From contig NZ_JAPDHX010000001.1 in the NCBI RefSeq assembly GCF_025972045.1, positions 724,787 through 788,786 of the forward strand: 64,000 nt of DNA. The letters are read 5' to 3'. The translations under genes were made by a program, and so were the position numbers. The notes beneath the pieces are model-generated. The model searched no databases. It saw only the letters and a list, made by a program, of their open reading frames with translations, and had not been told where the DNA came from. This DNA comes from Micropruina sonneratiae. GTDB lineage: Bacteria; Actinomycetota; Actinomycetes; Propionibacteriales; Propionibacteriaceae. This document shows, piece after piece, positions 950 through 61,385 of this stretch (the stretch's first letter is position 1; each line of letters begins with the position of its first letter).

Positions 950-3124
950 ATGGCGTTGTCCAACCCGTACCTGGCCGAGCTGGCCGCCGAGTTCGGCATC
1001 GCCACGGAGTTCTGGGACTGGAAGGGCCGGCTCACCGAGATCCCCGACGAGACCGTGATCGCCGTGCTGGCGGCGATGGAGATCGACGCCTCGGACGAGG
1101 CCGCCGCCGCCGCGGCCGTGCGTGAACTCAGGCTGCAGCCCTGGCGCCGGGCGCTGCCGCCGTGCACCGTGATGCAGCAGGGCCGTCCCGAGGTGCTGCG
1201 GGTGCATGTGCCCGACGGCGCGGCCGCGGACGTCTACGTCCGGCTCGAGGACGGCGGCGGGCGAACCCTGCGCCAGCTGATCAACGACGAGCCCGCGCGC
1301 GAGGTCGACGGGGTGATGATCGGCGAGGCGAGTTTCGAGCTGCCCGACGACCTGCCGATCGGGTACCACCGGGTCGGCTGCCGAACCGAGCAGTGGCGGG
1401 CCGAGGAGACGCTGATCGTCACCCCGCACTTCCTCGGCTTCCCGCCCACGATGGGCAACAAGCGGGTCTGGGGCTACGCCACTCAGCTGTACAGCGTCCG
1501 CTCTGCCGAATCGTGGGGGATCGGCGACCTGGCCGACCTGGCCGACGTGGCCACCTGGTCGGCGACCCAGCAGTTCGCGTCCTACGTGCTGGTCAACCCG
1601 CTGCACGCGGCCGAGCCGATGACCCCGCTGGAGCCGTCGCCCTACCTGCCCACGTCACGCCGCTACGTGAACCCGATCTACATCCGGCCCGAGGCGATCG
1701 CCGAATACGCCGGGCTCGACCAGCGGCAACGCCACAAGGTCGCCCAGTTGCACAACGGGCTGGCCCGCACGCTGGCGGACGAGCCGCTGATCGACCGCAA
1801 CACCGTGTGGGACGCGAAGCTGTCGGCGCTGAAGGTGATCTTCGATGCCGGGCTCAAACCCACCCGGCTGATGAGCCTCAACGACTTCGTCCGCAAGGAG
1901 GGGCGCCCGCTGTCGCAGTTCGCCACCTGGTGCGCGCTGGTCAACGTCCACGGGCTGAACTGGCGGGAATGGCCGGCCGAGCTGCGGCGTCCGTCCTCAC
2001 CGGAGGTGACGGAGTTCGCTGCCACGCACGTCGGCGACATCGTCTTCTTCTCCTGGCTGCAGTGGGTGGCCGACGAACAGCTCCGCGACGCCCAGTCGGC
2101 GGCCAAGGCGGCCGGCATGCGGGTCGGCATCATGAACGACCTCGCGGTCGGGGTGAGCGCCACCTCCGCCGAGGCGTGGATGCTGGGCGACACCTTCGCC
2201 CGCGGCGTCTCGGTCGGCGCCCCGCCCGACCACTTCAACCAGACCGGACAGGACTGGGGGCAGGCCCCGTGGCGTCCGGACCGGCTGGCCGAGCTCAGCT
2301 ACGCGCCGTTCCGCAACATGGTGGCCGGCATCCTGCGGCACTCCGGCGGTATCCGGGTCGACCACATCATGGGGCTGTTCCGGCTGTGGTGGGTGCCGCA
2401 GGGGATGGGTCCCACCAAGGGCACCTACGTGCGCTACAACCACGAGGCCATGGTCGGCATCCTGGTGCTCGAGGCGCACCGCGCCGGGGCGGTCGTGGTC
2501 GGCGAGGACCTGGGCGTGGTGGAGCCGTGGGTGCGGGTCTACCTGCGCGACCGCGGCATCCTGGGCACCTCGATCGCCTGGTTCGAACGCGACGGCAACG
2601 GTCAGATCCTGCCGCCGGAGTCGTGGCGGGAATACTGCATGGCCTCGGTCACCACCCACGACCTGCCGCCCACCGCCGGGTACCTGGACGCCGCCCACGT
2701 GAAGCTGCAGCATCAGCTCGGCCTGCTGACCGAGGGGCTGGACGCCGAACTCGACCAGGCCCGGCGCGAACGCGAGGACTGGCTGGCGCTGCTGCGCGAA
2801 CGCGGCCTGCTGACCGGCGAGGAGCCGTCCACCGTGGACATCGTGCTGGCCCTGCACCGCTTCCTGGTCGCCACCCCGGCCCGGATGCTTTGCGCCGCCC
2901 TGACCGACGCCGTCGGCGACCACCGCACCCAGAACCAGCCCGGAACCACCGACGAGTACCCTAACTGGCGGGTGCCGCTGTCCGGGCTCGGCGGCACCCC
3001 GATGTCGCTGGAGGACGTCTTCCACTCCGAGCGTGCGCTTCGGCTGTCGGCGGTGATGAACGGTTTCGTGGTGCCGCCCACCGCACACCGCTCGACCTCG
3101 GAGTTCATCATCGGCCACGACTAG
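950..3124 (+). CDS. malQ: 4-alpha-glucanotransferase (amylomaltase, GH77)
   Basis: Cytoplasmic enzyme that transfers alpha-1,4-glucan segments between maltodextrins, used in glycogen and maltose metabolism. The 724-residue protein has an N-terminal extension of about 170 residues typical of actinobacterial and enterobacterial MalQ, followed by the GH77 barrel. The catalytic set can be placed: nucleophile Asp471 in GIRVDHIMGLFRLWW, acid/base Glu519 in VVGEDLGVVEPWV, and Asp571 in TTHDLPPTAGYLD. The ATG at 950 is chosen over the GTG at 914 because it has an AAGGA ribosome site about 9 bases upstream and the product begins MALSNPYLAELA. The gene is monocistronic, running toward the minus-strand XRE gene. 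Confidence 0.96.
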   Translation: MALSNPYLAELAAEFGIATEFWDWKGRLTEIPDETVIAVLAAMEIDASDEAAAAAAVRELRLQPWRRALPPCTVMQQGRPEVLRVHVPDGAAADVYVRLEDGGGRTLRQLINDEPAREVDGVMIGEASFELPDDLPIGYHRVGCRTEQWRAEETLIVTPHFLGFPPTMGNKRVWGYATQLYSVRSAESWGIGDLADLADVATWSATQQFASYVLVNPLHAAEPMTPLEPSPYLPTSRRYVNPIYIRPEAIAEYAGLDQRQRHKVAQLHNGLARTLADEPLIDRNTVWDAKLSALKVIFDAGLKPTRLMSLNDFVRKEGRPLSQFATWCALVNVHGLNWREWPAELRRPSSPEVTEFAATHVGDIVFFSWLQWVADEQLRDAQSAAKAAGMRVGIMNDLAVGVSATSAEAWMLGDTFARGVSVGAPPDHFNQTGQDWGQAPWRPDRLAELSYAPFRNMVAGILRHSGGIRVDHIMGLFRLWWVPQGMGPTKGTYVRYNHEAMVGILVLEAHRAGAVVVGEDLGVVEPWVRVYLRDRGILGTSIAWFERDGNGQILPPESWREYCMASVTTHDLPPTAGYLDAAHVKLQHQLGLLTEGLDAELDQARREREDWLALLRERGLLTGEEPSTVDIVLALHRFLVATPARMLCAALTDAVGDHRTQNQPGTTDEYPNWRVPLSGLGGTPMSLEDVFHSERALRLSAVMNGFVVPPTAHRSTSEFIIGHD

Positions 3125-3166
3125 CGGCCCGCCCCGCCGCTGGTCCGGGCTCGCGCCGGGAAGGCG

Positions 3167-3736
3167 TCAGGCGGGGGTGACGATCGTGAGCACGGCGAGC
3201 GCGCCGTCCTCGGTGCTGTAGGTGTGCACCGCGTCGCTGATCCACTCCAGCGATTCACCCGGTCCCGCGTGGCGCTGGGAGCCCTCCGGGCCCGCCAGCA
3301 GGTGACCGCGCACCACCCGGACGTGCTCGACCACGCCCGGGCCGTGCGCGGGGGAGCGCCGGACGCCGCCGGGCACCACCCGCAGCCAGAACACCTCGGT
3401 GGTCGCCCCGTCGTCATGGTGCTCGACGTGCAGCAGCCGGGCGGTCAGCTGCGAGCCGCCGCCCTCGGTGCCCGATTCGTCGCCGAGCAGGGCGGACAAC
3501 GGCACGCCCAGGGGCCCGGCGACCGCGTACAGCGTGTCGAGGGTGGGGTTGCGCCGTCCCGCCTCGAGTTCGGACAGCGACCCCTTGCCGATGCCGGCGG
3601 ACCGGGCCAGGGCCGACAGGCTCAACCCCCGCGCGGTGCGTAGTTCGCTGATCCGCGCGCCGACCTCCCTGCGCAGGTCGTCCGCGTCCCGGAACCCGCT
3701 GCGGCGCCGGCCGTCGCCATCGGCAGGGTTGCTCAC
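3167..3736 (-). CDS. XRE-family regulator with C-terminal cupin domain
   Basis: A 189-residue protein with an HTH_3 domain (about residues 25-80; LSLSALARSAGIGKGSLSELE) and a C-terminal cupin-2 sensor domain (about 115-185, GGVRRSPAHGPGVVEHVRVV). This domain pair is the PuuR/SutR-like regulator type, often controlling an adjacent transporter or catabolic gene. The start is the GTG at 3736, directly following a TAGCGT -10 box with 7 bases between, so the mRNA may be leaderless. It is divergent from the BenE-type symporter and shares a 95-bp intergenic region holding a 28-bp palindrome, probably its operator. The ligand is unknown. Confidence 0.9.
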   Translation of the reverse strand: MSNPADGDGRRRSGFRDADDLRREVGARISELRTARGLSLSALARSAGIGKGSLSELEAGRRNPTLDTLYAVAGPLGVPLSALLGDESGTEGGGSQLTARLLHVEHHDDGATTEVFWLRVVPGGVRRSPAHGPGVVEHVRVVRGHLLAGPEGSQRHAGPGESLEWISDAVHTYSTEDGALAVLTIVTPA

Positions 3737-3743
3737 CTCGCTG

Positions 3744-3749
3744 ACGCTA
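3744..3749 (-). promoter_or_regulatory. -10 box of the XRE regulator gene, leaderless arrangement
   Basis: On the minus strand TAGCGT ends 7 bases before the GTG start at 3736. That spacing puts the transcription start at or next to the start codon. No convincing -35 was seen. Confidence 0.45.
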
Positions 3750-3787
3750 CCTTTTGGGTTGCGCACGACAGGCCGGTCCGCCGATCG

Positions 3788-3815
3788 AACATCGTTCTGT
3801 TTACAGAACGATGTT
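3788..3815. promoter_or_regulatory. 28-bp perfect palindrome, probable XRE-regulator operator
   Basis: Thirteen-base arms (AACATCGTTCTGT and its complement) flank a 2-base centre; the core reads TTCTGTTTACAGAA. It lies in the intergenic region of the divergent regulator and symporter genes and covers the expected -35 region of the symporter promoter (-10 TAGGCT at 3818). This is what a self-regulating repressor of a divergent pair would use. The sequence is AT-richer than its surroundings. Confidence 0.75.
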
Positions 3816-24850: not shown

Positions 24851-25313
24851 TCAGGGCCCTGACCAGGATGAGCGTCGGGCCTTCCCAGTCCAGCCCGTCG
24901 AACTCGTGCATCGGCAGGAACCCGACCGCCCTGTAGAAGGCACGCGTGGCGGCGTAGCCGGCGTCCGGGAAGGACGGCCCCACGGTGTGCACCTCAAGAA
25001 GTCGGCATTCGTCGGCGCGCAGGTGGTCCGCCACGGCCGTGACCAGTGACCGGCCGATGCCCGCGGCTCGGTGATCTGCGTGAACCGCGATCAAACTGAG
25101 CTCCGCGGACTCGGGGAAGTGCCTGTCCACCAGGGCGACCCCGATGGTCAGTCCATCGACCACGGCCAGGAACGAGTCCAGCGTCGCCGACTGGTCGACG
25201 TAGCTGCGGATCGCCTCCTCGATGCCGAACCAGGCCGGCAGCGAGCGCAGGACACGGTCGACCCCCGCCGGATCGTGGCGCCGTTCGATGCGGATGCCCT
25301 GTGATTGCGTCAC
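24840..25313 (-). CDS. GNAT-family N-acetyltransferase
   Basis: A 157-residue single GNAT domain. Acetyl-CoA binding motif A is seen in LSLIAVHADHRAAGIGRSLV, with the AGIGRS loop, then RLLEVHTVGP and the C-terminal AFYRAVGF motif B. Substrate unknown. GTG at 25313 overlaps the stop of the upstream FAD oxidoreductase gene by 4 bases, so it is the last gene of the DUF4126 - oxidoreductase - GNAT operon. The start of the open frame further upstream lies inside the oxidoreductase gene and is not used. Confidence 0.87.
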   Translation of the reverse strand: MTQSQGIRIERRHDPAGVDRVLRSLPAWFGIEEAIRSYVDQSATLDSFLAVVDGLTIGVALVDRHFPESAELSLIAVHADHRAAGIGRSLVTAVADHLRADECRLLEVHTVGPSFPDAGYAATRAFYRAVGFLPMHEFDGLDWEGPTLILVRALTTG

Positions 25314-26566
25314 GGCCGGACCGCCTTGTTGGTGGGTCTGATGTCGGATCCGGTGAGGTTCTCGTGGGTGACGTAGACGGCCAGCGCCGCCGACAGCAGT
25401 TGCGCCCACGGGTCGTTACCGCCCCGGCTGGAGGCGCTGGCCGTCACCACGTTCGGCAGGGCGGTGCGCAACGCGGGTTGCCGCAGCCATGTCCGCGGCG
25501 AGCTCCAGCGGGTGCCGTACGACGCGTCCGGGACGCCGGCGGCGTGGTCGTGGGTGATCAGGCGACCGGGTAGGCGGTACTCGACCCGGACTCCGGCGGC
25601 GGTGTGCCGAACGGTCTCAAGGACAGTGTGAGTCCGGACATCGAACTCAATGTCCGGACGCACACTGTCCTCGGTGCCGGTGCTGACCCGTGGGGCCAGC
25701 GCGGGCCTGGGGCGGTTGAACAGGGGTTCGGTCGAGCCGGTGAGCCGCCGGTACTCCCAGGGGTTGATCGTCGCCACGATCGCGTCGACCGCGGTCTCGC
25801 CCTCGGCGGTGCGCACGAGGCCGGATTCGATGGCCGTCACCGGCTCGCCCAGCCGCACCTCGACGCCGCGCAGGTCCAGCCGCTCCGCGAGCAGATCGAT
25901 CAGGCCGGACGCCGGCACCGGCACGCCGTCCCGGGTCAGCTGCCAGCGCCCGAACGTGCGTTCCAGGGCGAGGCGTACGGCGACGAAACCCGGGGTGCGG
26001 GCCGGGTCGGAGCCGATCCGCCAGGCGGTCGAGCGGACCAGCGCCGCCGCCTGGGGGTGGCCGGCGTCGCGGGCCAGCGCCTCGACGCTCCGGTTGAGTC
26101 CCAGCCGCCGGCGGCGGGCCGCGGTGAGCGCCTCGTCGGTGAACTCGTCCTCCAGACCGAGCCGGCGCAGCAGCTGCCAGCGCCCGTCCAGGTCGTCGAG
26201 CAGGTCACGCCAGCGGGTCGCGGCCGGCACACCCCAGGCCTCGCCGAGCGCCGCCCACTGCTCGCCACGATCCGTCGGTAGCACGAGGGTCGAGCCGTCG
26301 GGGAAGTGGTGGGTGGCAGGCGGGGCCGGCACGAGCGCGTGACCGGTGCGGGCCAGCTCGGCGTCGAAGGGGCGTCCGGACTTGCGGAACAGGTCGCGCC
26401 ACGGCGCCGGAAGGGTGAGCACCGGCGGCAGCGCGCCCGGGTCCGCCCAGCGCCCGCCGAGTTGGTCGCGGGCCTCGAACAGCAGCACCCGGTGCCGCTG
26501 TTTGGCCAGCCGGGCGGCGGCCGCCATGCCGGGCAGCGAACCGCCCACCACGGCGATGACGCTCAT
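25310..26566 (-). CDS. FAD-dependent oxidoreductase, phytoene-desaturase/amine-oxidase-like, with internal palindromic insertion
   Basis: A 418-residue flavoprotein. The dinucleotide-binding start IAVVGGSLPGMAAAARLAKQ with the following FEARDQLGGRW is diagnostic for NAD(P)-binding-8/amine-oxidase-like proteins; the C-terminal FAD motif is weakly preserved around NVVTASASSRGGNDPWAQ. Substrate unknown. About residues 299-316 (DSVRPDIEFDVRTHTV) are encoded by a 52-bp near-perfect palindrome, which keeps the frame open and looks like an inserted repeat. ATG at 26566 overlaps the DUF4126 stop by 4 bases. Confidence 0.83.
   Translation of the reverse strand: MSVIAVVGGSLPGMAAAARLAKQRHRVLLFEARDQLGGRWADPGALPPVLTLPAPWRDLFRKSGRPFDAELARTGHALVPAPPATHHFPDGSTLVLPTDRGEQWAALGEAWGVPAATRWRDLLDDLDGRWQLLRRLGLEDEFTDEALTAARRRRLGLNRSVEALARDAGHPQAAALVRSTAWRIGSDPARTPGFVAVRLALERTFGRWQLTRDGVPVPASGLIDLLAERLDLRGVEVRLGEPVTAIESGLVRTAEGETAVDAIVATINPWEYRRLTGSTEPLFNRPRPALAPRVSTGTEDSVRPDIEFDVRTHTVLETVRHTAAGVRVEYRLPGRLITHDHAAGVPDASYGTRWSSPRTWLRQPALRTALPNVVTASASSRGGNDPWAQLLSAALAVYVTHENLTGSDIRPTNKAVRP
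25620..25671. repeat. 52-bp near-perfect palindrome inside the FAD oxidoreductase gene (REP/MITE-like)
   Basis: The 20-base arms at 25621-25640 and 25651-25670 match at 19 of 20 positions; the outer A/T and inner T/A bases also pair, leaving an 8-base centre. Because of its phase it encodes nearly the same peptide on both strands (DSVRPDIEF.. and DSVSPDIEL..). A terminator makes no sense inside a gene, so an inserted palindromic repeat unit is the best reading. Confidence 0.75.
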
Positions 26567-59727: not shown

Positions 59728-59741
59728 GCGCCGTAAGGCGA

Positions 59742-59776
59742 CGAAGGGGTGACGGAGCTGCTCCGTCACCCCTTCG
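59742..59776. terminator. Bidirectional terminator between pyk and the kinase gene
   Basis: CGAAGGGGTGACGGAG (59742-59757) and its perfect complement (59761-59776) flank a CTG loop: 16 uninterrupted pairs. It starts 15 bases after the pyk stop and lies 14 bases beyond the stop of the convergent kinase gene, so it serves both. Confidence 0.88.
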
Positions 59777-59789
59777 CCGGGTCAGTGGA

Positions 59790-61342: not shown

Positions 61343-61385
61343 CTCCCCACACAGCACGGTATTGGATGCCGAGCCGTGTGGGGAG
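61343..61385. promoter_or_regulatory. Inverted repeat between dehydrogenase and kinase genes
   Basis: CTCCCCACAC (61343-61352) and GTGTGGGGAG (61376-61385) are perfect complements around 23 bases that can pair further (CACGG/CCGTG alternative). In the 148-bp gap it may attenuate or terminate transcription from the dehydrogenase, or be an operator for the kinase. No clear promoter seen. Confidence 0.5.

What the first reader, a model, noticed from the sequence alone, without database searches (positions are those of the whole stretch)
25620..25671. 52-bp palindrome inserted in frame in an oxidoreductase gene
The arms match at 19/20 bases plus outer and inner pairs, far beyond chance, in the middle of a coding region where a terminator is impossible. 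It keeps the frame and, because of its phase, encodes almost the same peptide on either strand. This is expected for a mobile palindromic repeat (REP/REPIN or MITE type) that tolerates insertion into genes as a protein-level spacer.
Basis: partly seen in the sequence, partly recalled or inferred. Interest (0 to 1): 0.6.

Follow-up and report, generated by a model that had tools for sequence, protein, structure and literature searches.

The report
Nuclease-linked dispersed DNA palindrome
The 52-base palindrome inside this gene is one of many scattered copies of a small repeat, and repeats of this kind also stand on both sides of an unusual nuclease gene in many actinobacteria, which suggests a partnership that resembles a known class of bacterial mobile repeats but uses a different enzyme.

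Summary
The palindrome is real (25-nt arms, 92% complementary) and lies in frame in an FAD/NAD oxidoreductase gene of a Micropruina species. It is dispersed: 11 places in this genome, none for the reversed control pattern. In M. glycogenica, related palindromes stand as direct repeats around a gene for a ~315-aa protein with an AbiEi-like winged-helix part and a Vsr/homing-endonuclease fold. This is general: in other actinobacteria the two flanks of homologous genes carry similar repeats in 53 of 70 loci and 38 of 61 further loci, against 2 of 68 and 0 of 57 distal windows. The palindromes differ between species and match within a locus. The host genome's own nuclease gene is flanked by a second palindrome family with 15 more copies. 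At one syntenic site M. glycogenica has palindrome-nuclease-palindrome where this genome has one palindrome. So the dispersed-repeat reading is supported, including in-gene copies; RAYT is not (no Y1 transposase match in this genome). It is organised like a REP/RAYT pair with an unrelated enzyme. Binding, cutting and mobilisation by the nuclease are inferred, not shown; no target-site duplication was found.

The parts
25620..25671 (.). Solo copy of the family-1 dispersed palindrome (~52 bp); outer half-sites GGACAGTGTG(A/C)G... and ...CTCACACTGTCC read on the minus strand, centre CATTGAGTTCGATG
   Evidence: 11 places in the genome; related palindromes flank a nuclease gene in M. glycogenica.
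25310..26566 (-). Host gene: 418-aa FAD/NAD-binding oxidoreductase, open through the palindrome
   Evidence: orthologues in congeners.

Best explanation
The segment is a solo copy of a short dispersed palindromic element (~52 bp) of a REP-like system whose partner is not a RAYT but a chromosomal protein made of an AbiEi-like winged-helix part and a Vsr-like endonuclease fold. Shown: the copies; similar palindromes on the two sides of the nuclease gene in many actinobacteria; palindromes that differ between species but match within a locus; dispersed copies of the nuclease-flanking family in three Micropruina genomes (G000, G001, G005); presence or absence of copies between species. Inferred: a nuclease dimer binds the outer half-sites through the AbiEi-like part (AbiEi of S. 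agalactiae binds a palindrome of similar geometry), the Vsr-like domain acts near the centre, and cutting or nicking helps copy the palindrome to new places, which persist where harmless: just downstream of stop codons, or in frame in variable linkers such as this one. Family 1 in this genome seems to have outlived its nuclease, which M. glycogenica still has.
For: 11 places of family 1, 0 for the reversed control. Direct-repeat palindromes around the nuclease gene of M. glycogenica. Flanks alike in 53 of 70 loci against 2 of 68 distal windows, 0 of 70 mispaired, 0 of 70 shuffled; new set 38 of 61 against 0 of 57. The palindrome flanking this genome's own nuclease gene has 15 further places; the one of G001 has 7 further single places and a pair in G001, and 8 places in G004, one inside the same oxidoreductase gene. 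Palindrome-nuclease-palindrome in M. glycogenica against one palindrome here at a syntenic site. In-gene segment of L194 absent from two orthologues; family-2 palindrome absent from four syntenic places. Fold: AbiEi 6y8q, then I-Bth0305I/Vsr. AbiEi binds 23-bp-arm inverted repeats (PMC3985639, passages). Palindrome similarity rises with nuclease identity.
Against: No target-site duplication. No binding or cutting data exist. The nuclease gene of three congeners is at one syntenic place, so the gene itself is not seen moving among them. No family-1 nuclease was found in this genome (1 homologue in all at E 1e-10, with family-2 flanks). 17 of 70 and 23 of 61 loci do not pass the flank-similarity test. 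The correlation comes mainly from pairs with nuclease identity of 50% or more and includes a few near-identical loci (Spearman 0.19, Mantel r 0.38).
Confidence: 0.62

Rival explanations
1. Operator/regulon: the palindromes are binding sites of an AbiEi-like regulator that represses its own gene, and dispersed copies are regulatory sites; the nuclease does not spread them.
For: AbiEi antitoxin represses its promoter by binding inverted repeats of 11 bp, 27 bp apart, extending to 23-bp arms (PMC3985639, passages); one palindrome lies upstream of the nuclease gene.
Against: A second copy lies just downstream of the gene; 16 of 23 dispersed copies outside genes lie at gene 3' ends (my reading) and at least 3 of 26 inside genes; no AbiEii gene among the 10 downstream neighbours scanned.
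Confidence: 0.12
2. IS-like unit with solo leftovers: the mobile thing is palindrome-nuclease-palindrome, and single palindromes are what recombination between the two direct repeats leaves, as solo LTRs do.
For: G000 has one palindrome exactly where M. glycogenica has the whole unit.
Against: G000 has 26 solo copies and one whole unit; in three congeners the unit is at one syntenic place; not found on 72,556 plasmid records.
Confidence: 0.13
3. Bidirectional transcription terminators or RNA-stability hairpins kept by selection, with only chance resemblance to mobile repeats.
For: Stable hairpin; 16 of 23 copies outside genes lie within 60 bp of a gene 3' end (no background control made).
Against: Sequence, not only pairing, is conserved among copies; in-gene copies; pairing with the nuclease gene.
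Confidence: 0.05
4. Classical REP/REPIN moved by a RAYT, or a MITE of an ordinary IS.
For: Short, palindromic, dispersed, mostly near gene ends, at times inside genes, as described for REPs (PMC3733652, passages).
Against: No Y1_Tnp match in G000; no target-site duplication; the gene found between matching palindromes is the nuclease gene. Other transposase families were not searched for.
Confidence: 0.04

Closest known systems
REP-RAYT pairs (REPtrons)
   Same: Short dispersed palindromes, species-specific, flanking a chromosomal enzyme gene; mostly downstream of genes, at times inside genes (PMC3733652, passages; PMC8266576, abstract).
   Different: RAYTs are HUH Y1 transposases; here the gene encodes an AbiEi-like/Vsr-like protein, Y1_Tnp is absent from this genome, and the palindrome is ~52 bp without a GTAG tag at its ends.
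Rickettsia palindromic elements (RPE) and CGTC REPs
   Same: In-frame insertion in protein genes; CGTC REPs are described as lacking a dedicated transposase (PMC10969869 and PMC3733652, passages).
   Different: RPEs are ~150 bp and no linked nuclease is mentioned in the passages seen; sequences were not compared.
AbiEi antitoxin of type IV AbiE systems
   Same: N-terminal part has the AbiEi fold (6y8q, Z 9.0, rmsd 4.3, 177 aligned); AbiEi binds a palindrome of similar geometry (PMC3985639, passages).
   Different: Fused to a Vsr-like domain; no AbiEii gene among 10 downstream neighbours scanned; dispersed copies of the palindrome.
Vsr endonuclease / I-Bth0305I homing endonuclease / DUF559
   Same: C-terminal fold (3r3p Z 12.2, rmsd 2.5, 96 aligned; 3hrl 11.7; 1cw0 10.7); DUF559 in 27 of 56 members.
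   Different: Fused to an AbiEi-like part and bracketed by palindromes; a linked methyltransferase or intron was not searched for.

Membership tests
REP/RAYT (REPtron) | RAYT (Y1 HUH transposase) gene in the genome | tested here: not met
   PF01797: 0 candidates in G000; found in G003 and G005 only, of 6 genomes.
REP/RAYT (REPtron) | GTAG tetranucleotide at one end | tested here: not met
   Arm consensus of families 1 and 2 shows no such tag at the ends.
REP/RAYT (REPtron) | Dispersed palindrome that also flanks its enzyme gene | tested here: met
   With a nuclease gene in place of a RAYT.
MITE | Target-site duplication | tested here: not met
   No excess of matching flanks for lengths 2-9 at any boundary tried, 26 copies.
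MITE | Parent IS with the same terminal repeats | tested here: inconclusive
   A 1.1-kb palindrome-gene-palindrome unit exists, but its gene is not a known transposase.
Rickettsia palindromic element | In-frame insertion in unrelated protein genes | tested here: met
   Oxidoreductase (window), glycoside phosphorylase (L194), esterase (L231); not filed as RPE because sequence and length were not compared and differ from the ~150 bp quoted.
AbiE type IV toxin-antitoxin | AbiEii toxin gene next to abiEi | tested here: not met
   0 of 10 downstream neighbours scanned are AbiEii; upstream neighbours were not scanned.
AbiE type IV toxin-antitoxin | AbiEi fold | tested here: met
   Pfam AbiEi_4 in 48 of 56; 6y8q by fold.
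Vsr-like endonuclease | Vsr fold | tested here: met
Vsr-like endonuclease | DNA cutting or nicking activity | not testable with these tools
   Invariant acidic and Cys residues suggest it; no assay.

The most novel reading that the evidence does not exclude
A distinct class of bacterial mobile repeat: ~50-bp palindromes spread by a chromosomal AbiEi-like/Vsr-like endonuclease that recognises them (outer half-sites bound by the AbiEi-like part, centre cut by the Vsr-like domain), widespread in Actinomycetota, evolving as fast-changing enzyme-palindrome pairs and now and then writing new in-frame peptides into genes; some 'AbiEi antitoxin' annotations would be these enzymes.
Probability: 0.45. 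Interest if true: 0.9.

Novelty: new variant of a known kind. Interest (0 to 1): 0.74.

Why it matters
Short palindromic repeats are common in bacteria, and outside RAYT-linked REPs the spreading enzyme is often unknown (CGTC REPs are said to lack one; PMC3733652, passages). A nuclease gene family with similar palindromes on both sides gives a concrete, purifiable candidate outside the HUH transposases and makes the question testable. It also warns that proteins matched by PADLOC or Pfam as AbiEi can be something other than an antitoxin, and it offers a natural series of enzyme-palindrome pairs for studying how DNA recognition changes.

Tried and rejected
RAYT/REP: tested and rejected for this genome. 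Target-site duplication: none found. Rfam: no match in 25000-26300 at E up to 1. Plasmid and phage records: no DNA match to the 91-bp region; the nuclease protein is in none of 72,556 plasmid records at E 1e-8 and in one of 50,697 phage records at E 1e-5. Broken nuclease gene in G000: first suspected from a TGA, rejected, since the TGA lies before a GTG start. Extra 310-aa ORF at L234 as a hidden nuclease: rejected (HMM score -3.8; membrane-like by eye). Palindrome pair at G001 C391: no nuclease match among its ORFs. A strict codon-bias test found only L194 and L231 open through the element with coding signal on both sides and missed the window's own gene on one side, so the in-gene count is a minimum. 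The tblastx synteny screen was noisy (many G+C-rich hits of 30-60%) and its printout was cut; I used only long hits of about 70% identity or more. NCBIfam gave no shared family. Foldseek hits below the first ranks were weak; folds not listed are not excluded. Literature: searches listed no paper that I recognised, from titles and abstract starts, as linking an AbiEi/DUF559/Vsr-like gene with flanking or dispersed palindromes; preprints and most subscription journals are not in that library.

Full report
Observation. The inverted repeat at 25620-25671 heads the list for the window (25-nt arms, 92% complementary, 2 nt apart), its inner pattern is unique in the window and it folds far better than shuffles (z -6.9). 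It lies in frame in a 418-aa FAD/NAD oxidoreductase gene on the minus strand, and nearly the same peptide is encoded on both strands.

It is one of many. A whole-genome search with the 91-bp region found further diverged copies. The pattern GTGTGAG-N6-CATYGA-NN-TCRATG-N6-CTCACAC with up to 3 mismatches gave 11 places in the 3.5-Mb genome and none for the reversed control. Conservation falls off about 25 nt from the centre. Among 196 genomes, this one included, the exact outer arms (CAGTGTGAG, 14-44 nt, CTCACACTG) occur in two, this one and G005, 3 places each.

The host gene. Among orthologues, G001 (75% identical) lacks the segment; G005 has a related palindrome and G004 a different one in the same linker. 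The linker varies in length in the other homologues aligned, so the boundaries are not clean.

The partner gene. In M. glycogenica two related palindromes stand 1,063 bp apart, start to start, as direct repeats around an open frame. Its protein P0002 has an AbiEi_4 N-terminus. In a search of 63 genomes 38 have homologues, 74 match rows in all. I examined 70 loci covering 71 of those rows; three rows were not fetched. Palindromes on both sides were plain in many. Left and right flanks (about 260 bp) are alike, local score 25 or more in either orientation, in 53 of 70, against 2 of 68 pairs of windows 630-900 bp away, 0 of 70 shuffles and 0 of 70 left flanks paired with another genome's right flank. 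A palindrome scoring 12 or more is upstream in 36, downstream in 41 and on both sides in 25 of 70, against 1, 0 and 0 of 68 distal. Flanks of 24 oxidoreductase homologues gave 0 upstream, 2 downstream and 1 alike. A scan of named genomes kept the best 80 of 273 relatives; 13 repeated the first set, 67 were new, 61 had enough flank: 38 of 61 alike against 0 of 57 distal; palindrome upstream 28, downstream 32, both 21 of 61, against 1, 1 and 0 of 57. Record titles include Nocardioides, Gordonia, Microlunatus, Kribbella, Nakamurella and Terrabacter. In four loci a third or fourth copy lies nearby (L120, L122, L252, L261).

What the protein is. The 56-member alignment has invariant E201, H212, D230, E241, D256, D260, C284, C306 and C309, among others. 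Pfam: AbiEi_4 in 48 and DUF559 in 27 of 56; the PADLOC families shared by many members are AbiEi. The model (pLDDT 94.8) matches AbiEi 6y8q over residues 8-193 (Z 9.0, rmsd 4.3, 177 aligned; Foldseek E 5.5e-6) and, over 198-299, I-Bth0305I 3r3p (Z 12.2, rmsd 2.5, 96 aligned), 3hrl (11.7) and E. coli Vsr 1cw0 (10.7). Caulobacter VsrA also holds a DUF559 domain (PMC12907096, passages). None of 10 downstream neighbours scanned is AbiEii.

The genome's own pair. G000 has one homologue at E 1e-10, C1:37627-38556, intact from a GTG start, flanked by another palindrome (family 2, TCCAGATCGGGCACCGA...). That family has 17 places in G000: the two flanks and 15 more. The G001 nuclease palindrome has, beside its two flanks, seven single places and a pair at C391 in G001, and 8 places in G004, one of them (C118:13632) inside the G004 oxidoreductase orthologue. 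Thus two palindrome families have entered the same linker of this gene in different species.

History. The nuclease genes of G000, G004 and one of the two of G005 share both neighbours while their palindromes differ: vertical descent with fast palindrome change. The solo family-1 copy at G000 C17:31836 (L011) lies where M. glycogenica has palindrome-nuclease-palindrome: flanks L011 1583-2031 / L094 864-1311 and 2099-3445 / 2447-3793, 82-83% identical. So G000 probably lost that nuclease, or M. glycogenica gained it. At a convergent-gene site a family-2 palindrome is in G000, and a diverged one in G005 that I saw by eye and in the blastn alignment (the palindrome score did not flag it); it is not in the syntenic stretches of G001 (two loci), G003 and G004, which hold other repeats; G002 aligns on one flank only. 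At another place G000 and G004 both have palindromes with a near-identical core and different outer arms, which could mean repeated insertion or an old insertion changed in concert. Across 71 loci palindrome similarity rises with nuclease identity (Spearman 0.19; Mantel r 0.38, 0 of 2000 permutations); the rise is small below 60% identity, and a few near-identical pairs contribute.

Where copies lie. Of 26 dispersed copies in G000 (11 + 15), at least three are inside genes: the window's; L194 in a glycoside phosphorylase gene, whose G004 and G002 orthologues lack the segment in a gappy alignment; and L231 in an esterase gene, orthologues not compared. By my reading, 16 of the other 23 have the 3' end of a high-GC3 frame within 60 bp of the centre; no background was computed.

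How it may work. AbiEi of S. agalactiae represses its promoter by binding inverted repeats of 11 bp, 27 bp apart, extending to 23-bp arms (PMC3985639, passages). Family 1 has a like layout: conserved outer half-sites and a conserved centre with a more variable stretch between. I infer that a nuclease dimer binds the outer arms and that the Vsr-like domain works near the centre. How this would make new copies (break- or nick-driven copying, or capture of a hairpin single strand) is open. No target-site duplication was seen.

Known parallels. REPtrons are closest in organisation (PMC3733652, passages; PMC8266576, abstract) but use HUH transposases; Y1_Tnp has no match in G000. The same source reports different REPs at about the same site of recB in two Xanthomonas species, much like the two families in this oxidoreductase linker. 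RPEs insert in frame likewise (PMC10969869, passages). My literature searches listed no such nuclease-palindrome pair.

Noticed in passing
window 59739-59779 and 61343-61385: Two further strong inverted repeats (20-nt arms, 95% and 85% complementary), not compared with the element.
   Followed up: no
L238 193-1254 (G001 C391): Two palindromes of the G001 nuclease family lie on either side of a 296-aa frame that looks like an alpha/beta hydrolase (by eye), not a nuclease: neighbouring insertions or a composite unit.
   Followed up: partly
L331 about 2530-2940 (G005), L333 and L335: Another repeat family (GGGGACGGTTCC / GGAACCGTCCCC) at the same convergent-gene site; G003 and G005 have a Y1 transposase match, so this may be a true REP family.
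   Followed up: no
L330 about 2570-2810 (G004) and L332 (G001): Repeats of the type CGTCATCCCGG...CCGGGATGACG at that site, reminiscent of CGTC-tagged REPs (resemblance by eye).
   Followed up: no
L246 (JAGROY010000004.1): A contig labelled Verrucomicrobiia MAG carries the M. glycogenica nuclease locus at 99% identity with its palindromes; probably a binning error.
   Followed up: partly
phage record MT835975.1, 8488-9417: The one phage record of 50,697 with a nuclease homologue (35% identity, 93% of the query); flanks not examined.
   Followed up: no
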